This document shows positions 15,928 to 59,143 of a stretch of 64,000 nucleotides of DNA, in pieces. Within the stretch, counting starts at the first letter, position 1, and every line of letters starts with the position of its first letter. The DNA comes from Roseibium sp. TrichSKD4. GTDB taxonomy: Bacteria > Pseudomonadota > Alphaproteobacteria > Rhizobiales > Stappiaceae. The notes below the pieces were generated by a model. That model was not told where the DNA came from. It did no database searches and saw only the letters and a program-made list of their open reading frames with translations. The DNA lies in the NCBI RefSeq assembly GCF_000148725.1, contig NZ_GL476320.1, positions 227,698-291,697 on the forward strand. Direction: 5' to 3'. A program made the translations under genes and the position numbers.

Positions 15928-18111
15928 TTGTCCGGGGGTGGGGTGGCAAATAAAAGCAACTTTTTATTGTGCTTGAGGCTGGGACTTGGATTGGATCGCC
16001 TTCCACGCGCCGAACAAACACTTGCTCTCAAACATTTCGACGGAACACGCTTAAGGACTGCTCGCGGAATCGCGGTTTATTTTGAATTCGCCCGATTGAG
16101 TGTGTTCTGTGTGTTTTTGCTGACCATTTCGGTATTTTGCTACGATTTGGCAAAACCCGAGTTTCAATACAGTTTCACCCCGTACTTACTCGCTTTTGCT
16201 CCATCCATTGCCGCCGTATTGGTGAGTGGCGCGCTGAAGTTGGCGTTTTTGCAAAAGTCCTTCAGTCTATCCAACTGGGTATTCTATCGAAAACTCCATG
16301 CGATTTTTGGCATAACTTGTTCACTTGCTGCCTGCGCATTGTTCGTTGTGGAAGCCGGAGAGAAAAACTTTGCAATCGTTTTTGCGGCCGCTTGCATCCA
16401 AATGCCAGTCAAACTTGGGTATGTCGCCTTTAGCAGAAGGTTCCTGTATTTAGCGTACTTTGTTGTTCCGGGTCTTTTTCTCGGCTTTCTCTCTATTGTT
16501 GCGGCGGAATTTGGAAACTTCCCGATTGAGCCAGGAATGGGTGATTTGTTTTGGTTGGTCATCCATGGGACGACAGCAGCAATTAGCGCCACTTTGGCAA
16601 TCAACTGGATATCGACACAAGCCAGTTTTGTAGAAAGCAAGGTTATCCTCGCAAATGCTGACTTGGAAGAAGAGAGAGAAGGTCTGAGAGCGGAGAAAGA
16701 ATTTTCCGAGAATATCAGAAACTCTTTGAGCGAAGGTGTCGTGATTGCAGATCATGCATTGTCGATCATTCAAATGAACCCGGCTTTCGAGGTGCTGTTC
16801 TCAGGTTTGAGCGTCGGAGACAAGCTTCCCTCCCATTTGGCGGAGTTTGCAGGCAGAACAAAGCTCGGCTCACGTAGCGAGCGTTCAGATCTGGAATTGG
16901 AAGACGGGCGTATTTTAAACGTCGGTTGCCAACCGTTTTGGATAAAGTCTGATGAAATTGGCTACATTTGCACTTTGCTCGATGTCACTGAACAAAGACG
17001 GATTGACGAAGAAATAGCGAAGAACGAGCATCTGAAAGCACTTGGTGTTCTGGCCAGCAGTGTAGCACACGACTTCAACAATTATCTCGCAATCATGCGG
17101 GCAAACACCGAACTCCTTTTGAAACTGGATACCGTTGGAACACAAAACCGACACTTGCAGAATATCCTGCACTCCTGCGAAAGCGCCTCTATCGTCACTC
17201 GGCAATTATTGTCCACCGTCAGGGATCTTCCAGAACAGATCGAAATCGTGGATGCGGCAGATGTCTTGAAGGCTGCTGCGCGCTTGTTGTCCCATTCAGA
17301 CCGATATCGAGTTCCAATATCCATGGATCTTGAGGATGGAGCATATATTCTGATAGATGCGCTTTTGCTGGAAACGATGATCCTGAACCTTGTGTCGAAT
17401 GCCTGCGATGCGGTGGGGAGTGACGGTCAGGTAGCATTATCCGTTCGACGGTATGACGGCGAAGTCAGTTTAAACGTCATCGACAATGGGGAAGGTATTT
17501 CCGCCGACATGATCGAAAAGGTCACTCAGCCGTTCTTCACCACCAAACGGGATGGCAGGGGAACCGGGTTGGGCCTGTCCACGGTCGCCTCATTCGCCAA
17601 GCGTCACAACGGTCGGCTGAAATTGCACAGCGAACTGGGCAAGGGAACAACCGCATCTCTTATCTTTCCAGCACAGGACGTGACTGCTGAAGGTGGTCAA
17701 ATGGTTGAAAGTGAAAGTGATCGAAGCGCATCGGATAGCTGTAAAGTTCTGGTGGTTGAAGATAACCCGGAATTGAGACTTACGCTGGAGGAGCTGCTTA
17801 GGGTCTTGGGCCATCAAGTCATTACTGCGAGCGGCACTAACGAGTTCAATAGAATTGCAGATTCGCAGCTGCAGGATGTTGATTTGGTATTCTGCGATAT
17901 TCTGTTGGATCAGGAATTCGGAAGCGAGGTGCTGAAGGCGTTTAGATCCAAGGGGCATACTGCGCCATTTGTGTTCATGAGCGGAAATCTACCCAAACAC
18001 GAAGAAGAAACGATCCTTGAAATTGAGCCTTGCCAGTTTCTCCAAAAACCTCTGACCCTTGCAGACCTTCAAAAGGTATTTTCAAAGCAAACTGTTCGAG
18101 AGTATGCCTGA
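15928..18111 (+). CDS. Membrane-bound hybrid sensor histidine kinase with receiver domain
   Basis: 727 residues from a TTG start (a GTG at 15943 is an alternative). Residues ~50-230 hold about six membrane segments; 260-355 look like a PAS domain; the dimerisation/phosphoacceptor helix has His381 in SSVAHDFNNYLA; the ATPase domain shows NLVSNACDAV, DNGEGI and GTGLGLS (N, G1, G2 boxes); residues ~605-725 are a receiver with Asp657 in FCDILLD. The HDFNN H-box is of the NtrB/HPK4-like type. The input signal is unknown. No dedicated response regulator lies next to it; an EAL protein is convergent 7 bp downstream. Confidence 0.88.
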   Translation: MSGGGVANKSNFLLCLRLGLGLDRLPRAEQTLALKHFDGTRLRTARGIAVYFEFARLSVFCVFLLTISVFCYDLAKPEFQYSFTPYLLAFAPSIAAVLVSGALKLAFLQKSFSLSNWVFYRKLHAIFGITCSLAACALFVVEAGEKNFAIVFAAACIQMPVKLGYVAFSRRFLYLAYFVVPGLFLGFLSIVAAEFGNFPIEPGMGDLFWLVIHGTTAAISATLAINWISTQASFVESKVILANADLEEEREGLRAEKEFSENIRNSLSEGVVIADHALSIIQMNPAFEVLFSGLSVGDKLPSHLAEFAGRTKLGSRSERSDLELEDGRILNVGCQPFWIKSDEIGYICTLLDVTEQRRIDEEIAKNEHLKALGVLASSVAHDFNNYLAIMRANTELLLKLDTVGTQNRHLQNILHSCESASIVTRQLLSTVRDLPEQIEIVDAADVLKAAARLLSHSDRYRVPISMDLEDGAYILIDALLLETMILNLVSNACDAVGSDGQVALSVRRYDGEVSLNVIDNGEGISADMIEKVTQPFFTTKRDGRGTGLGLSTVASFAKRHNGRLKLHSELGKGTTASLIFPAQDVTAEGGQMVESESDRSASDSCKVLVVEDNPELRLTLEELLRVLGHQVITASGTNEFNRIADSQLQDVDLVFCDILLDQEFGSEVLKAFRSKGHTAPFVFMSGNLPKHEEETILEIEPCQFLQKPLTLADLQKVFSKQTVREYA

Positions 18112-18118
18112 TACTAAT

Positions 18119-18886
18119 TCAGAAAACTCTGTCACGAGATGCAGGTGATCGAGGTTTCAGCCAGGTGAGTAAATCATCCGCAGTCATTGGCATGGCAAAA
18201 AGGAACCCCTGAAACCGGGTGACCCCTGCCGACTTCAGTTTTGAATACTGTGCCCCGGTTTCAACGCCTTCAACGATCAGTTCTGCGCCTAATTTCCGCG
18301 TCATGGAGACAAGTGCTGAAACCATTGCGCTGACACGGCTGTCCGTTTCGATATGGGTTATCAGCGAGCTGTCGAGCTTTAAGAGGGAAAATGGAAATTG
18401 GGTCAAGCGGGCGTAACTCGAATAGCCCTTGCCGAAATCATCGATCGCAATGCGTATTCCTGCCGCTGACAGGGCTGAGAGGTTTTCGCCAATTTGGCCG
18501 TAATTTTGCGCCATGTCATTTTCCGTAAATTCCAGAACAAGCCTTTGAGACTTGAGACCGTTTACGGAAATGGCTTGCAAACAGCTTTCAACGAAGTTCT
18601 GCCCAGATGCGTGCGAGGGCCGAATATTGATTGAAAGCTCAATGTCTGGGGCTGCATCGAAAATTGGTTTGGCGCTGCGGCAAGCCTGTTCGAGAACGTA
18701 ATTTCCAAGAGCCGGGCCAAGCCCGATTTCGTCTGCGATATCAAACATCTCTTCAGGACCAATTGTTCCGGTTACCGGGTGCAGCCAGCGCGAGAGCGCC
18801 TCAAAGGCCACAATCTTTTCATCGGGACCTTTCACGATCGGTTGGAAGACAATTTCGATTGCCTGATTTTGAATGGCGTTGGTCAA
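18119..18886 (-). CDS. EAL-domain c-di-GMP phosphodiesterase
   Basis: 255 residues, essentially a single EAL domain. Residues expected for activity are present: Glu29 in FEALSRW, Asn87 in INIRPS, Glu119/Glu122 in LEFTEND, Asp149-Asp150 in IDDFGKG, Lys in LLKLDSS, and the glutamates of VEGVET. It therefore probably hydrolyses c-di-GMP to pGpG in the cytoplasm. Its start lies 12 bp after the stop of the GGDEF gene, so a cyclase and phosphodiesterase are expressed from one operon as separate proteins rather than as the more common GGDEF-EAL fusion. Confidence 0.9.
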   Translation of the reverse strand: MTNAIQNQAIEIVFQPIVKGPDEKIVAFEALSRWLHPVTGTIGPEEMFDIADEIGLGPALGNYVLEQACRSAKPIFDAAPDIELSINIRPSHASGQNFVESCLQAISVNGLKSQRLVLEFTENDMAQNYGQIGENLSALSAAGIRIAIDDFGKGYSSYARLTQFPFSLLKLDSSLITHIETDSRVSAMVSALVSMTRKLGAELIVEGVETGAQYSKLKSAGVTRFQGFLFAMPMTADDLLTWLKPRSPASRDRVF

Positions 18887-18898
18887 TTCCTCTTCAAT

Positions 18899-20092
18899 TT
18901 ATACGCGTCGTCTGAGTTCGCTCGCCATGGAAGGGTGATAGAAACACGATTGACGGCGCCCGCGCCCTTTTGCCTCATAAAGGGCAAGGTCCGCCTCATG
19001 CATCAGGTCTGACATTGTCCGATACTGACCTCTGTCGGAGGTCGTAATGCCGATGCTGCCCGTTATGGAAACCGTGGCTCCTTCATAGTCGATACGTGCG
19101 GAAATCACCTCAATCACTTTTTCGGCCAATTCGGCAGCAATATCCTGGGGGCCGTCGACGACAAGGGCAAACTCGTCGCCGCCAAGACGCGCGATCAAAC
19201 TAGCGTCAGCCAATGATTTCAATCTTTTGCCGATTTCCTTCAAGACAAGATCGCCGGCAACATGGCCGAGGCGATCGTTAATCGGCTTGAAACCATCCAG
19301 ATCCAGAAGCAGGAGATTGAACTCACTGGTCTGATCATCTGCTTGCAGTTTCTCTAGGTGTTCGGAAAAGGCACGGCGATTGTATAGGCCAGTGAGAAAA
19401 TCGGTTTCAGCGACCTCTCGGACCTTTCGATTGGTTTCATGAAGTTTTCGCGCCAGTTTCATGCTGCGGAACAATTCAAACAGCAAATAGAGAAAGCCCA
19501 ATAGACCGCCGGCACCCAAAGCGATATTCAGGCTTTTCAGCATGTTGGTCGCCTCAAATTGGGCTTCAAGCGCAGATGCTGCCTTGTTGCGACGCTTGTG
19601 ATAGGCCGCCTGAGCCAAGTTTAAAACCTCTTGGCGATGCGCAAAATAGAGCTTTTCCAGATCGGCTGCTGTCTCGGGCTTACCTTCAACAATAGCATTC
19701 GCAGCCTTTTCGAAGTTCGGCAAGTCGTCCTTCAGGCGATTGACAATCAGCTGTGCTTTGTCCTGATCGTCGTAGGCTTCGATATAATCGGCTTGCGCCA
19801 ACGTGTGCGTTCGCGACCAGAAAATATCCAGCGCGCGGTTCATGTCCTTTCGTGTCGCCCAATCTTCACCTTTGGCAATCGCAATCGCCGTCTCGAAAAA
19901 AGTCCGATACTCCCACCCAAATTGACCGACTTCTTCCAGCCGAGCAGAATAAAACTCTCGCCGATCAAACTCGGTTACCGCCGTGTTGATGGTGATTTGA
20001 GTAAAGATCATGCCAACCACAAACAGAACAATGACAAGCGCGGAGCGCATGAGCGACCACTGTCCTGTCAGTGTTTTGGTATTAAGTTTCAT
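18899..20092 (-). CDS. Membrane diguanylate cyclase with periplasmic sensor domain (GGDEF)
   Basis: 397 residues. Membrane segments at ~17-37 and ~188-208 flank a mostly helical periplasmic domain of about 150 residues. The cytoplasmic C-terminus has DFLTGLYNRRAF and the intact active-site motif GGDEF at 304-308. The RxxD inhibitory site normally five residues before it is absent (LADA instead), so product inhibition is not expected. It makes c-di-GMP from GTP. Located between a periplasmic-protein gene upstream and the EAL gene downstream in one operon. Confidence 0.9.
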   Translation of the reverse strand: MKLNTKTLTGQWSLMRSALVIVLFVVGMIFTQITINTAVTEFDRREFYSARLEEVGQFGWEYRTFFETAIAIAKGEDWATRKDMNRALDIFWSRTHTLAQADYIEAYDDQDKAQLIVNRLKDDLPNFEKAANAIVEGKPETAADLEKLYFAHRQEVLNLAQAAYHKRRNKAASALEAQFEATNMLKSLNIALGAGGLLGFLYLLFELFRSMKLARKLHETNRKVREVAETDFLTGLYNRRAFSEHLEKLQADDQTSEFNLLLLDLDGFKPINDRLGHVAGDLVLKEIGKRLKSLADASLIARLGGDEFALVVDGPQDIAAELAEKVIEVISARIDYEGATVSITGSIGITTSDRGQYRTMSDLMHEADLALYEAKGRGRRQSCFYHPSMASELRRRV

Positions 20093-20671: not shown

Positions 20672-21220
20672 GTTTATTGCATAGTAAAGTAGAGCAGAAT
20701 GCTAGTTAAAATATGTTATGTGATCGCATGAAAACTTCGAAGAAAACACCGTAAGAGGCTGTAATTTAAAGAAAAGGTGCCTGAGATTGTGGTTTGGGTT
20801 AACAAAGCGCAATCGGCATCTGCGGAACTTTTGTGAAACTATAAAGGCTGTCTCAGCCCATGAAGATGGTGCGGAGAGAATTCAGGACTTGGGGAAGGGT
20901 GGTGGTGCCGGCAGCAGGATTCGAACCCGCGACCCCGAGATTACAAATGTTGGTGGAGTTAATATATTACAATTAGTTACGCTTTGTATATTTCTGAATT
21001 CAAGTATTTCTCACACGCAACCATAAAGAAGATGTTGTTATTGAAAGGTGCGTTGCGATCCACGGGATCAACAGGTTGCTGACAATTCGGTGATGATGGA
21101 CTTCATGCTGAAACTTCGACGGTGCAAGGTAGCGGTGTTTGGAAAAATCGATATAAGTGGGGTAACGATTCACTGAGCAGATGATGTATATGATGCCCTT
21201 TGCCGGCAACGGAGGCATGA
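20672..21220. other. Left prophage junction and flanks
   Basis: Holds the left attachment repeat (20903-20948) and about 270 bp of AT-rich phage DNA before the ParB-like gene. The ribosome binding site GGAGG sits at 21211-21215. A pair of ATGs at 21217 and 21221 overlap out of frame; only the second opens the long frame. I see no gene in this stretch. Confidence 0.6.
20903..20948. repeat. attL: 46-bp copy of the tRNA-Thr 3' end
   Basis: Identical base for base to 59068-59113 and differing on both flanks (G versus T before, G versus C after). It contains the T arm, variable loop, 3' acceptor strand and CCA of the tRNA but not the 5' half, so it is the leftover bacterial 3' end after integration. 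Confidence 0.92.
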
Positions 21221-22363
21221 ATGAATTGGGATGAACTCGTCGAGATTGGCGCTACAGGAACGGTTGATACCGAACTGCTCCATTTCGATACTAACAATCC
21301 ACGCTTCACGCCTGACAAACGTCCGAATGAAGATACTGATCAGGCCATCATCGCTGAATTGGCGAGGAGTGCTGATCTGTCCGAACTCGTTCAATCCATT
21401 GGAACTAGTGGTTACATTAATATTGAGCCGCTAGTTGTAGTTGTTCGTGGGGGAAGGCTTGTTGTACTCGAGGGGAATCGAAGGCTTGCTGCGCTTAAAG
21501 CCCTGCGGAACGAGCAATATGCACAGAATGCGAAACTCAGTATCCCGGAATTTGGACAAGAAGTCAGCGAAACTCTCAATAAAATCTTAGTCTACAGGGT
21601 CGAGCGCGAGGAAGACGCCCGTCAATTGATAGGGTTTAAACACATTAATGGCCCGCAAGCTTGGGATGCGTTCGCAAAGGCAACGTTCGCCGCCCGCTGG
21701 TTGGATTCGCAAGCAGTAGAAGAGACCCCCTTGTCGCTCATGGCTATAGCCAGCCGAATGGGCGATAAGCATGCGACTATCCATAGGATGGTGACTGCAT
21801 TTTATGTTCTTATGCAGGCTGAGGATGAAGAAATATTTAGTATGGAGGATCGTTACAAGCGCGCCTTTAGCTTCTCGCACCTGTATACTGGACTCTCATA
21901 CGCCGAATATACAGATTATTTGGGGATGCCACGGCCTCAAAGAACAGAGGATCCAAAAAGAAACCCTGTGGAGCCGGAGTATTATCCTAAACTTAGATAC
22001 TTGCTGACTTGGCTGTATGGCTCCAAAGAGCGGGAAATACAGCCAGTAGTACGGAGCCAGAATCCGGACCTTGGTCGTTTGCGGGAGGTTCTCAAATCAA
22101 AACCAGGGATAAAGGTGCTTGAGCAGACGAGCCATCTTGAAGATGCACTTATTACGTCCACGCCTAAAGATATTCGATTTTCGAAACATATAGTTGATGC
22201 AAATGCCGAATTGAGGCTTGCCCTTGAAACGCTCGATGGGTTTGATCCTGAAACACAGCCAGAGCTTCAAGAGATCGTAAATTCTGCTTATAAACGCGTT
22301 CAGCTCATTAAGACGAGTGTTGATGTGCAAATGACTGACTTCGAAAGAGAAATAGAAAAATAA
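21221..22363 (+). CDS. ParB/Srx-like domain protein of the attL-proximal cargo cassette
   Basis: 380 residues. The N-terminal ~110 residues have the ParB/sulfiredoxin fold pattern: DTNNPRF, then SELVQSIGTSGYINIEPLVVV, then VLEGNRRLAALKAL, the nucleotide-binding G-N-R-R box. The segment LIGFKHINGPQAWDAFAKA follows as in many ParB-like proteins, with a possible helix-turn-helix (PLSLMAIASRMGDKHATIHRMV) near 165-190. The rest is unrecognised. Not a partition protein: no ParA partner or centromere repeats are nearby. Ends 2 bp before the next gene, so co-transcribed with the nuclease-like gene. ParB-like folds occur in several defence and modification systems; here it may recognise DNA or use CTP/ATP (inference). 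Confidence 0.8.
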   Translation: MNWDELVEIGATGTVDTELLHFDTNNPRFTPDKRPNEDTDQAIIAELARSADLSELVQSIGTSGYINIEPLVVVVRGGRLVVLEGNRRLAALKALRNEQYAQNAKLSIPEFGQEVSETLNKILVYRVEREEDARQLIGFKHINGPQAWDAFAKATFAARWLDSQAVEETPLSLMAIASRMGDKHATIHRMVTAFYVLMQAEDEEIFSMEDRYKRAFSFSHLYTGLSYAEYTDYLGMPRPQRTEDPKRNPVEPEYYPKLRYLLTWLYGSKEREIQPVVRSQNPDLGRLREVLKSKPGIKVLEQTSHLEDALITSTPKDIRFSKHIVDANAELRLALETLDGFDPETQPELQEIVNSAYKRVQLIKTSVDVQMTDFEREIEK

Positions 22364-22365
22364 CG

Positions 22366-23391
22366 ATGGTTGGGGAACCCGTTGTTACTCCAGTGCCAGG
22401 AGAAAAAGACCACGTCATCGTTGATTGGCTGGAACTGGTAGCGTTTTTTAACGACTACCGCACAGCTCGTGTCGACGAACTCGTTGCAGCGCTCGAAGAG
22501 CAATTTGAAAGCGCTAACGATGATGCCGATGTCGATGAAGACGACCCTCTCGGATCCGATGACGTTGGAAATATAGGCAGAAAAGACGCTGAAAAAGAAC
22601 AGCTTCTCGAGCGAATTGAAAACGAAGTCGAATTCCGCATTAAAGATTGCGATGGTACTTACCCGTTCGAGCTTACAGATGATGCTGAAGAATTAATTCT
22701 AGTAGAGAATTGGCAAAGCGATCACTATACACCCTATCTTACTTGTCTAATTACTACGCATTTGACACGAAGTAGCCTATTCGATTTTGTTGTGCCTGAT
22801 AGAGTCATTCAAAGACTCCGGAATCGTGTATTTCAAGTACTCTCAACCTTTGCTATGGCTGGTTTAGTATCCGGAAGCGCTGCGAGTATTGGTTGGCCGC
22901 GTGAAGATCGAGCTTCGATACTTGATACGCTGCGGCGCGCAGAAGGGCGAAATGCGGGTTTTGCAACCAAGGGGCAGCCGGGAAGGTATACTTCACCAAA
23001 AGAAAAGGATGGTGGAGTAGATGTTATCGCGTGGAGGATCGAGAATCGTCCTCCGCCGATTTTGTTTTATTTTGCGCAAGTCGCTAGTGGTCACAATTGG
23101 CCCGGTAAACCGGTGAGCGTACACAAGGACTTGTTTGAAAGAAACTATATGGATGATCCGCATCGCGGGAATGTTAACTTTGCCACTCTCTTGCCGTTCC
23201 GTATTCATGACAAATTAGAATGGCAAAATGAGCATGTAATTCATGGTACGTTACTGGATAGAACGCGATTGCCGAATTACGCGGTTAAAGGGAAGTTGCT
23301 TGCCGATAGTGGAGTGGAAATGGATGAGTCCGAAAATATGCCTCAAGTATTAGATTGGATTACACAATTCCGAGGTGTCGCTGGCCTCTAA
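22366..23391 (+). CDS. Unknown protein, possible PD-(D/E)XK-like nuclease, partner of the ParB-like protein
   Basis: 341 residues. The N-terminal third is very acidic (ANDDADVDEDDPLG) and helical. Residues ~205-265 contain GRYTSPKEKDGGVDVIAWR followed by ILFYFAQVASGHNWPGK. The order G-x-D-(V/I)-x-A, a hydrophobic strand, then Q-x-A-S-G resembles the D...QxK core of Mrr-like restriction endonucleases with a variant last residue; this is an inference from pattern. A later segment GTLLDRTRLPNYA is probably conserved. I cannot name the family. It starts 2 bp after the ParB-like gene and overlaps the convergent methyltransferase gene tail-to-tail by 4 bp, so the three genes form one tight unit. 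Confidence 0.75.
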   Translation: MVGEPVVTPVPGEKDHVIVDWLELVAFFNDYRTARVDELVAALEEQFESANDDADVDEDDPLGSDDVGNIGRKDAEKEQLLERIENEVEFRIKDCDGTYPFELTDDAEELILVENWQSDHYTPYLTCLITTHLTRSSLFDFVVPDRVIQRLRNRVFQVLSTFAMAGLVSGSAASIGWPREDRASILDTLRRAEGRNAGFATKGQPGRYTSPKEKDGGVDVIAWRIENRPPPILFYFAQVASGHNWPGKPVSVHKDLFERNYMDDPHRGNVNFATLLPFRIHDKLEWQNEHVIHGTLLDRTRLPNYAVKGKLLADSGVEMDESENMPQVLDWITQFRGVAGL

Positions 23392-24296
23392 ACCAAATTT
23401 GGTTCTATTAGTATTTCGTTCTCTCTGCGCTTCGATTGCAGGCTATAGTTTACAGAAATCGAAGAACAGTTTTGTGTGTGGTATATTTCGCGGATCAATG
23501 GAGCGTCATCATATGTGAGAATCCAATTAGGAACGGATCCACTAGTCAGAATATCAGATAATGCAACGTGTTTTGCTTCGCTCATCCCATTTAAATAAAG
23601 CCTCCCTCCTACCTTAACATAAGGGGGGTCAATGAAATAAAAGATCTTAGAAGGGTCAGTTTTTCTTCGGCTCTGATCAATAAAAGACAATCCATCCTTA
23701 TTCGAGAGCGCAATCCTACGCCTGTTGTTTCCGAGCCATAGAATTCGTTTCTTCAAGTTATCTACATTGAAACGAGCGTTTATTTTCCACTTGCCTGATT
23801 GATCATAGCCACCAATTGGGCCAGCGTTGATTACAATGCCCGACCTCGTTGTGCGGTTCATGTAAAATGTTGAGAAGCCAAGTTCGAAGTCATACTCAGA
23901 GCCTTTGAAGTTAGTTACAGTTTCTCGGTGACGATACCATTCGTCCATATCAAGGTGAACTTGCTCCAATCTGGATATGAAAAGATCGGTCTCCTCAAGC
24001 ATTGCGTGCCACGCGGAGTAAATGCGTAGGTCGGCGTCGTTTAGCATGAGAGCATCCACATCTCCGCTTGCCAATAGTATCAGTGCAGCACCAGCGCCAC
24101 CGCAGAAGGGTTCCGCGAAAATACGGACGCCTTGTATTGAAGAAAGTCTCTGTCTGAGAAAGGCTGACATGAAACCTTTTCCGCCGGGATACCGAAAGGG
24201 TGATATCGCATTCTGACTAGATCGACCTTGGTCTTTAGGTATCTCGGTAGTGGGTAGCATCATAACAGGATTTTGTGGGTTGTCTCTGGGAGCCAA
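23388..24296 (-). CDS. D12-class (Dam-like) DNA N6-adenine methyltransferase
   Basis: About 302 residues from a TTG; internal ATGs near residue 12 are plausible starts. FRYPGGKG, AEPFCGGAGAAL (AdoMet-binding FxGxG-type motif) and FIDPPYVK (the catalytic DPPY motif) appear in the order typical of alpha-class Dam/DpnM enzymes. Later segments NWILTYDDAP and RRENEILI also fit. It transfers methyl from AdoMet to adenine in a short recognition site, possibly GATC-containing. It faces the nuclease-like gene, suggesting it protects self DNA from that system; an orphan phage methylase protecting against host restriction is the alternative. Confidence 0.88.
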   Translation of the reverse strand: MAPRDNPQNPVMMLPTTEIPKDQGRSSQNAISPFRYPGGKGFMSAFLRQRLSSIQGVRIFAEPFCGGAGAALILLASGDVDALMLNDADLRIYSAWHAMLEETDLFISRLEQVHLDMDEWYRHRETVTNFKGSEYDFELGFSTFYMNRTTRSGIVINAGPIGGYDQSGKWKINARFNVDNLKKRILWLGNNRRRIALSNKDGLSFIDQSRRKTDPSKIFYFIDPPYVKVGGRLYLNGMSEAKHVALSDILTSGSVPNWILTYDDAPLIREIYHTQNCSSISVNYSLQSKRRENEILIEPNLV

Positions 24297-24469
24297 TTTG
24301 GGATTCTAGAATTGACCAAGGCATGTTTGGTGGCTCGTCATATCAAGAATTATTGAATAAGTCTGATACTTTTTGGTTCATAAAGTGCTAAAATGAAGCA
24401 GTTTCAACGTTCTTAGAACGCAATGGTCTCGCGCAAAAAGTATTTCCGCTTATATCTACGGCGAATATG

Positions 24470-25825
24470 TCATCCCCGCGCCAAATCATACCAAGCGGTC
24501 AGTTTCCCGATTGCTCTCCGGGCAAGGTCCGGGTGCAGGCCGAGATAGTGTTTCATGATCTCGTTGACTGACTTCAGGCTGTGGCCGGTGATCGCCGCGA
24601 TCTCGGTCACCTCGCAGCCGGCCAGTGCCAGCCAGGTTACGGCCGTGTCGCGCAGATCTTGATCTCGAAAATCTTCCAGAGACGGTGTTGGTTGGATGAC
24701 CGGTTCGCCTTCGGGTTGATTTGAAACGACCGTCAAGGTGCTCACCAGCTTGAATTTGGTTATCCGGTAGCCCTTCGGTAGCGGAGAGGCGAGGGAGCCG
24801 TCCTGCAAGCGCCAGATGCCGAATGCGGCCGCGATGCAGATCTCGCGAAACAGGTGCTGGTAGTGCTTGGCCAGAAACGGCCGTCTCTGGCGCTCGTCTA
24901 GGTTCACATGTGGCCAGTTGACCCGCCAGTCTCTTCGACGCTCCTGTGCCGCTTTCTGCCGTCTGTCGACGATATCAGAAACCGGCAAAAGGAGAGGCTG
25001 GCCGTGTTTCTTGCCCTGGCGAAAGAGGACGCCGAGTTCGCTCATCTGTTCATAGGTCAAGTTGAGCCGATCGGCTTGCCGTTGTCCGAACCAGACGCCT
25101 TGTGTCACGATATCGCCAACCTCGGGTCGACCAACCACATCGCATGTTTCGACCAGGATCCGCATCTCGTCGATTTCGCCAAACCGGACGCGGGGAGGGG
25201 CCACGGGAAGGCTGTCTTCCATATGGCTTACTGGGTTGGAACGGGCCTTGTCGTTCTTGATGGCAAATTTGTAGACCTGACTGAGAAACGATCGCGCCCG
25301 GCGTGCCTGTGAAAGGCCATGCCTGATTTCAACCTGGTCCAGAAGCAGGGCCATGTTGCGCGGCGTGAAGGCTGCCGCCAGTTCTTCCCAGAAACGACCA
25401 TTCTCAAGTTGCTCGATCAGCCTGGCCGTTTCCCGGTAGCCTTGAGCCGTCTGCGGCTTCAATGGCCGTCGGACCTTTCGCCCCTCCCTGATTTCCTTGC
25501 CCAGCATGCGCGGGTTTTTCTCGCAAAAATCGGAAATGAGGTGGGCTAGGGTCGGAAGTCCTGCAGCGCGGGCATATTGTAGACCAGCGCGCCGACGTTT
25601 GGCCTGGCTGATTTCCCGCGTCTTTTGGCGAAGGGCGGCGAGTTCCTGTTGCTTGGCGGCTGACCAGGCGATGCATTCGTCGATCGAGAACCAGGTGCCG
25701 TCCGGATGCTGAAGGTTCTCACCTTTCAGGCCGAAATTCCTGCGTAGATCCGGTGCCGGGAAAAAACGCGGGCGACCATCGCGCCATGTCACGAGTGGGA
25801 TCTTGATGTCGGGTTTCTTGATCAT
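24470..25825 (-). CDS. int: Tyrosine-recombinase integrase
   Basis: 451 residues. The N-terminal half contains the arm/core-binding region (GLPTLAHLISDFCEKNPRM, RGYRETARLIEQLE-like). The catalytic end has LRDTAVTWLALAGCEVTEIAAITGHSLKSVNEIMKHYLG: the second Arg of the R-H-R-H-Y set, the GHS histidine and the Tyr nucleophile in KHYL. The usual His before the Arg is replaced (DQDLRD). It integrates the phage into tRNA-Thr. Unusually, about 3.5 kb of cargo separates it from attL. Confidence 0.92.
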   Translation of the reverse strand: MIKKPDIKIPLVTWRDGRPRFFPAPDLRRNFGLKGENLQHPDGTWFSIDECIAWSAAKQQELAALRQKTREISQAKRRRAGLQYARAAGLPTLAHLISDFCEKNPRMLGKEIREGRKVRRPLKPQTAQGYRETARLIEQLENGRFWEELAAAFTPRNMALLLDQVEIRHGLSQARRARSFLSQVYKFAIKNDKARSNPVSHMEDSLPVAPPRVRFGEIDEMRILVETCDVVGRPEVGDIVTQGVWFGQRQADRLNLTYEQMSELGVLFRQGKKHGQPLLLPVSDIVDRRQKAAQERRRDWRVNWPHVNLDERQRRPFLAKHYQHLFREICIAAAFGIWRLQDGSLASPLPKGYRITKFKLVSTLTVVSNQPEGEPVIQPTPSLEDFRDQDLRDTAVTWLALAGCEVTEIAAITGHSLKSVNEIMKHYLGLHPDLARRAIGKLTAWYDLARG

Positions 25826-59067: not shown

Positions 59068-59113
59068 TGGTGCCGGCAGCAGGATTCGAACCCGCGACCC
59101 CGAGATTACAAAT
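59068..59113. repeat. attR: 46-bp 3' end of tRNA-Thr, phage-derived copy
   Basis: Exact copy of 20903-20948. Here it joins the bacterial 5' half of the tRNA gene, so the phage supplies the 3' end and the tRNA stays functional. Confidence 0.92.
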
Positions 59114-59143
59114 CACGTGCTCTACCAACTGAGCTATACCGGC
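59068..59143 (-). tRNA. tRNA-Thr (anticodon TGT)
   Basis: Read on the minus strand, the gene begins GCCGGTA (acceptor), D arm TAGCTCAGTTGGTAGAGC, anticodon loop TTTGTAA with anticodon TGT, T arm GGGTTCGAATCC, 3' acceptor TGCCGGC, discriminator A and encoded CCA. All stems pair. 76 nt with CCA. It is the phage integration site; its promoter and 5' half are bacterial. Confidence 0.95.

What the first reader, a model, noticed from the sequence alone, without database searches (positions are those of the whole stretch)
20949..24440. Attachment-site cargo cassette: ParB-like protein, unknown nuclease-like protein, convergent Dam-like methyltransferase
Seen: three genes tightly packed between attL and the integrase, AT-richer than the phage structural genes. 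Genes 1 and 2 are 2 bp apart; gene 2 and the methyltransferase overlap tail-to-tail by 4 bp. Gene 1 has ParB/Srx motifs but no ParA partner. Gene 2 carries a G-G-V-D-V-I-A ... Q-V-A-S-G-x-N-W pattern resembling a variant PD-(D/E)XK core. Gene 3 has DPPY and FxGxG-type motifs of D12 methyltransferases. Known: phage edges beside attachment sites often hold defence cargo, and ParB-like folds occur in modification-linked systems. Inferred: a restriction-like defence in which the ParB-like protein senses or binds DNA, gene 2 cuts and gene 3 protects. I cannot match the trio to a described system.
Basis: partly seen in the sequence, partly recalled or inferred. Interest (0 to 1): 0.85.

Follow-up and report, generated by a model that had tools for sequence, protein, structure and literature searches.

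The report
ParB–nuclease–methylase defence cassette in prophage
A prophage carries three neighbouring genes (a ParB-like DNA-binding protein, a nuclease-like protein from an unnamed family, and a DNA methylase) that recur together in many bacteria and phages and probably cut foreign DNA while the methylase protects the host.

Summary
In detail: three genes lie between a 46-bp attL (3' end of tRNA-Thr) and the integrase of a podovirus-like prophage, with a 2-bp gap and a 4-bp tail-to-tail overlap. Gene 1 (380 aa) is a ParB-type protein with an EGNRRL box and a helix-turn-helix. Gene 2 (341 aa) matches no Pfam, NCBIfam or PADLOC family. Its confident model (pLDDT 90) ranks closest to PD-(D/E)XK endonucleases (MspJI, FokI), though at modest Z; D215, D219, Q238 and K248 never vary in 41 relatives, but the lysine is not at the usual E-x-K spacing. 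Gene 3 is a D12 adenine methyltransferase.
The trio is widespread: ParB stands beside gene 2 in 48 of 50 loci, and a methyltransferase follows in 46 of 48 with room. The methyltransferase comes from three different classes (D12, N6/N4, C5), mostly following the ParB tree. In the two E. coli records read, a close trio sits in a published P2 defence hotspot.
Closest known system: PD-λ-5, which shares the ParB domain and methyltransferase but lacks gene 2. Best reading: a restriction–modification-like system with a ParB-type reader and a separate nuclease. No activity was tested. New variant of a known kind.

The parts
20903..20948 (.). attL, 46-bp exact repeat of the tRNA-Thr 3' end
   Evidence: blastn self-comparison; ARAGORN
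21221..22363 (+). gene 1, ParB-type protein (ParB N domain + helix-turn-helix + helical tail), 380 aa
21470..21487 (+). EGNRRL box of gene 1 (ParB box II, GERR-like), residues 84-89, invariant in 36 of 36
   Evidence: aligned to GERRL of solved ParB 4umk
21734..21811 (+). helix-turn-helix region of gene 1, about residues 172-197 (read by eye within the structural match)
22366..23391 (+). gene 2, nuclease-like protein, 341 aa, no Pfam/NCBIfam/PADLOC family (PHROG 14650, unknown function)
23008..23109 (+). putative catalytic stretch of gene 2, D215...D219...Q238...K248, invariant in 41 of 41
23388..24296 (-). gene 3, D12-class N6-adenine DNA methyltransferase, 302 aa; FCGGAG and DPPY motifs
   Evidence: Pfam PF02086 1.6e-13; PADLOC PD-Lambda-5_B 3.6e-85
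24470..25825 (-). phage integrase next to the cassette (context)
   Evidence: PHROG 1 integrase 6.9e-18
59068..59113 (.). attR, other copy of the 46-bp repeat inside tRNA-Thr 59068-59143 (context)

Best explanation
A three-gene restriction-modification-like defence system. Shown: the genes, their order, the homology and the co-inheritance. Inferred: the ParB-type protein (gene 1) binds DNA through its helix-turn-helix, perhaps gated by a nucleotide in its ParB fold, and works with the gene 2 protein, a PD-(D/E)XK-type nuclease with a displaced catalytic lysine. The methyltransferase (gene 3) marks host and prophage DNA at the sites that the ParB-nuclease pair reads. Unmarked incoming DNA (other phages, plasmids) is cut; marked DNA is spared. 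The methyltransferase is an exchangeable module (D12 m6A, N6/N4 type, or C5 cytosine), while ParB and gene 2 form the fixed core.
Confidence: 0.6

Rival explanations
1. A three-gene branch of PD-λ-5 working as 'RM plus abortive infection': the ParB protein senses non-self or methylation state and gene 2, as a nuclease, kills or stops the infected cell rather than cutting only the invader.
For: Gene 3 matches PD-λ-5_B over its length and gene 1 shares the ParB domain with PD-λ-5_A; the PD-λ-5 authors call that system a compacted RM+Abi (passage); a HEPN gene in operon with ParB nuclease and DNA methylase genes is listed in PMC3710099 (passage).
Against: Gene 2 shows no relation to the PD-λ-5_A proteins (hhalign probability 0.1%) and no HEPN match; its highest fold rows are mostly DNA endonucleases.
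Confidence: 0.21
2. Gene 2 is a catalytically dead PD-(D/E)XK-like adaptor; the ParB-gene 2 pair regulates or targets the methyltransferase, and the cassette protects the prophage's own DNA against other restriction systems (phage self-modification).
For: Missing E-x-K lysine; low fold scores; a separate restriction endonuclease in L093-L095; whole core beside a broken methyltransferase in L006; many phages carry lone methyltransferases (general knowledge).
Against: D215, D219, Q238 and K248 never vary in 41 sequences, unusual for a dead domain; the pair also occurs on plasmid and chromosomal records with methyltransferases of three classes.
Confidence: 0.13
3. Gene 1 is a plasmid- or phage-type partition or repressor protein (KorB-like) and the neighbourhood is accidental.
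Against: No ParA among the three genes; 9 of 9 strong ParB places carry gene 2; the methyltransferase class follows the ParB tree.
Confidence: 0.04

Closest known systems
PD-λ-5 (PADLOC PD-Lambda-5_A/B; PMC9519451)
   Same: N-terminal ParB domain of protein A (hhalign 99.4% over 192 columns) and the same D12 methyltransferase profile (3.6e-85; two real PD-λ-5 pairs score 2e-106 and 1.5e-120); its authors call PD-λ-5 a prophage version of an RM+Abi system.
   Different: PD-λ-5_A profiles are 428-613 aa (one of 169) with another C-terminal part; no gene 2 was found beside the examples fetched. There the methyltransferase follows A on the same strand (L099, L100) or diverges (L098, weak match). 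Ours has a separate nuclease-like gene, and its relatives use three methyltransferase classes.
HEPN MAE_28990 in operon with ParB nuclease and DNA methylase (PMC3710099, one table line seen)
   Same: ParB-type gene with a DNA methylase gene.
   Different: HEPN partner there; a PD-(D/E)XK-like partner here.
Wphi gp98-gp96-mth and Pseudomonas phage D14A genes (NC_005056, BK061475)
   Same: Same order ParB, gene 2 relative, convergent methyltransferase with 4-bp overlap.
   Different: Methyltransferase is C5 cytosine type; gene 2 is far diverged (profile E 3.9e-18 and 1.6e-13). The annotations shown name no defence system.
GmrSD type IV restriction (ParB/Srx-fold GmrS + HNH GmrD; PMC4619093, passages)
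   Same: ParB/Srx-fold subunit paired with a nuclease.
   Different: No DUF262 or DUF1524 match; a methyltransferase is linked here.
PADLOC candidate PDC-M38A
   Same: Matches the ParB part: window gene 1 3e-16 over positions 57-193, Wphi gp98 9e-25 over 58-342.
   Different: The profile runs to 715; none of the 31 gene 2 relatives scanned matched it at E up to 0.1.

Membership tests
PD-λ-5 | Protein B: D12-type methyltransferase of the PD-Lambda-5_B profile | tested here: met
   3.6e-85, residues 30-298 to profile 4-269/291
PD-λ-5 | Protein A full-length (ParB domain plus its own C-terminal part) | tested here: not met
   Best 8e-18, residues 15-177 to profile 7-178/466 only; real A proteins match end to end, e.g. 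L012 28-477 to 1-464/466, L099 3-479 to 4-424/428
PD-λ-5 | Two-gene make-up without a separate nuclease gene | tested here: not met
   Gene 2 between the two, unrelated to the A proteins. That PD-λ-5 has two genes is inferred from PADLOC's A/B model names
PD-λ-5 | Anti-phage activity | not testable with these tools
   needs phage challenge
PD-(D/E)XK nucleases | alpha-beta-beta-beta-alpha-beta core | tested here: inconclusive
PD-(D/E)XK nucleases | D...(E/Q)-x-K with lysine two residues after the acid or glutamine | tested here: not met
   D219...Q238-V-A240; the invariant lysine is K248. Displaced lysines are known in the superfamily (recalled)
ParB/Noc/KorB | Box II G-E-R-R nucleotide-binding motif | tested here: met
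   EGNRRL invariant in 36 of 36, aligned to GERRL of 4umk; N stands for E
ParB/Noc/KorB | Box III E-N-x-Q-R | tested here: not met
   Replaced by (F/Y/V)(K/R)H in 36 of 36, read by eye; motif recalled
ParB/Noc/KorB | DNA-binding domain after the N domain | tested here: met
Type II-like restriction-modification | Linked DNA methyltransferase | tested here: met
   Pfam D12 1.6e-13, 51.4 bits, cut-off 22
Type II-like restriction-modification | Endonuclease activity blocked by the cognate methyl mark | not testable with these tools
   needs enzyme assay and methylome
GmrSD | DUF262 and DUF1524/HNH domains | tested here: not met
   No such Pfam match to E 1 in genes 1 and 2

The most novel reading that the evidence does not exclude
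Restriction driven by a ParB-type DNA clamp: gene 1 loads at an unmethylated recognition site, closes around DNA in a nucleotide-gated way like ParB or KorB, slides, and delivers the gene 2 nuclease. Methylation by the swappable methyltransferase blocks loading. That would be a restriction mechanism without a helicase motor or a self-contained recognition enzyme, distinct from types I-IV.
Probability: 0.2. Interest if true: 0.87.

Novelty: new variant of a known kind. Interest (0 to 1): 0.57.

Why it matters
Gene 2 is a conserved protein family with no named model found in Pfam, NCBIfam or PADLOC, yet it is tied to a ParB-type partner across mainly Pseudomonadota and phages and occurs in E. 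coli's P2 defence hotspot. If it cuts DNA, PD-λ-5 is one branch of a larger ParB-methylase group whose effector and mark are exchangeable, and defence annotation tools would miss or misname this branch. It gives a direct test of how a ParB fold can read methylation and license cutting.

Tried and rejected
Gene 2 by sequence: no Pfam, PADLOC or NCBIfam family for the window protein; for 31 relatives only scattered weak hits to one or two members each; PDB by sequence gave nothing better than E 0.13. Viral structure library: nothing at E 0.001; top row is a bunya-like virus polymerase at 0.016, and a few rows are named restriction or Mrr-like endonucleases. First viral-contig scan with the single protein found nothing; the three-sequence alignment found 21 loci. 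Phage records by gene 2 protein: none; by ParB: 6. GmrSD rejected (no DUF262/DUF1524). Partition thought unlikely (no ParA among the three genes, constant gene 2 partner). The ParB-gene 2 'fusion' in L015 (707 aa) is not used as evidence: it holds ambiguous residues and may be an assembly artefact.

Not-in-print: searches of a PMC open-licence library (no preprints, few subscription papers) listed no paper that I recognised as describing this trio; the Wphi/orf98 search listed nothing that looked relevant (20 of 854 listed). Papers seen: PMC9519451 (section 7 whole, other passages); passages only of PMC3710099, PMC9122126 (84, no 'ParB' or 'methyltransferase' in its main text), PMC13092281 (85, no 'ParB'), PMC12839542, PMC10853773, PMC4619093. 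PMC3424549 is not held.
Full report
Observation. The attachment site is an exact 46-bp repeat, 20903-20948 and 59068-59113, the latter being the 3' part of tRNA-Thr, so the prophage spans about 38 kb. Ten of its proteins were scanned; they include primase, terminase, head-tail adaptor, major head, tail, transglycosylase/internal-virion and endolysin families, podovirus-like by my reading. The trio is AT-richer than the rest of the prophage (46% against 55% G+C).

Protein families. Gene 1 is ParB-like: PHROG 3694 at 1.3e-72 (unknown function) and PADLOC PD-Lambda-5_A at 8e-18, the latter only over residues 15-177. Gene 2 has no Pfam, NCBIfam or PADLOC family and only PHROGs of unknown function (2.4e-27 and 9.2e-12). 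Gene 3 is a D12 methyltransferase (Pfam 1.6e-13) and PADLOC PD-Lambda-5_B (3.6e-85).

Relatives. Three plasmid loci, 19 bacterial loci and 21 viral contigs carry gene 2 relatives; L003 and L019 are the same locus. Of 52 loci examined together, 50 hold a gene 2 frame of at least 80 aa; L023 and L043 do not, their match running to the end of the fetched DNA. ParB lies directly upstream on the same strand in 48 of these 50; the misses are L015 (one fused frame with ambiguous residues) and L040 (contig edge). In L011 and L045 the ParB frame is split in two. Of 48 loci with at least 1.2 kb downstream, 46 have a methyltransferase: D12 convergent 28, D12 same strand 4, N6/N4 same strand 8, C5 convergent 6 (L018 added by eye, because its long frame overlaps gene 2 beyond the script's limit; in L093-L095 the C5 gene is about 1 kb away behind another frame). 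The two without are L006 (remnant with 6 stops) and L097. L014 and L096 were left out of this count for lack of room. Near-duplicates are included (L027/L028, L030/L032/L038, L041/L042, and the look-alikes L094/L095), and most loci were found through gene 2, so the counts are not independent.

The cleaner test is anchored. With a ParB profile, 18 of 394 genomes of one family had a match. The 9 strong places (E up to 1.1e-32, covering at least 293 of 375 profile positions; 8 genomes, one of them the search centre) all have a gene 2 relative next door, some as far as 5e-11. The 12 weaker places show no gene 2 in the roughly 3-kb loci; of five scanned from these (L078, L079, L084, L085, L088), four are full PD-λ-5_A proteins. 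With a gene 2 profile, 9 of 394 genomes matched: 8 with whole frames, all beside ParB, and G129, where only gene 2 fragments and an N6/N4 methyltransferase remnant remain.

Setting. In Paracoccus L010 the order tRNA-Pro, trio, integrase-like frame repeats the window's layout; L008 has tRNA-Lys and a weak integrase-like frame upstream. These were the only two integrase matches among 45 loci searched with this integrase, so the attachment-site setting is not general. In E. coli a close trio occurs in 20 of 5,426 complete genomes at DNA level (a lower bound); in both records read it lies between the replication endonuclease and portal genes of a P2-like prophage. PMC9519451 names that position a defence hotspot (passages). 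Phage Wphi and Pseudomonas phage D14A have the same order with a C5 methyltransferase.

Known systems. PD-λ-5 shares the ParB domain (hhalign 99.4%, 192 columns) and the methyltransferase, but its A protein has a different C-terminal part, unrelated to gene 2 (0.1%; the A alignment has 7 rows, two of them identical). L099 and L100 were confirmed as A+B pairs (the L100 A protein was scanned as L079). So the window's cassette is a sister branch, not a member, on two tested features. The PD-λ-5 authors describe theirs as a compacted RM+Abi system, and PMC3710099 lists a HEPN gene in operon with ParB nuclease and DNA methylase genes.

Coupling. On a ParB tree of 36 rows the methyltransferase class changes 5 times (minimum 3; shuffled mean 14.8; 0 of 200 shuffles as low). 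L024 (D12) sits beside L022 (N6/N4) on a starred branch, a fairly recent swap ('quick' tree, long branches present). The class thus follows the core but can be exchanged, as expected if the core reads the mark or its site; shared descent alone could also give much of this clustering.

Noticed in passing
window 23388-58887: An IMG/VR virus record (G001, 35,500 bp) is identical to this stretch: the public prophage call leaves out gene 1, almost all of gene 2 and both attachment sites, so that record misses its own cassette.
   Followed up: partly
L093 7099-8136, L094 7048-8169, L095 7058-8005: Restriction-endonuclease frames (NotI family PF12183 in L093, borderline, and L094; PADLOC REase_II 1.2e-35 in L095) between gene 2 and a C5 methyltransferase: possibly a complete type II system joined to the core.
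   Followed up: partly
L015 4855-6978: One 707-aa frame covers ParB and gene 2 in a Brevundimonas MAG; ambiguous residues make an assembly artefact possible.
   Followed up: partly
L001 5608-7779: Microvirga plasmid copy: ParB cut short and gene 2 in two frames, beside a whole methyltransferase frame and transposase-like frames (the last by eye), so apparently decaying.
   Followed up: no
L006 7032-7742 (-): Methyltransferase remnant with 6 stops beside whole ParB and gene 2 frames.
   Followed up: partly
L018 8145-10154 (-) and L012 2339-3775 (+): Full-length PD-λ-5_A proteins (1e-209 and 5.8e-122) close to the trio: two related systems side by side.
   Followed up: partly
window 15928-20092: Host flank left of attL has sensor-type genes by eye (a histidine kinase/response regulator hybrid, an EAL protein and a GGDEF protein); not checked with a profile search.
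   Followed up: no
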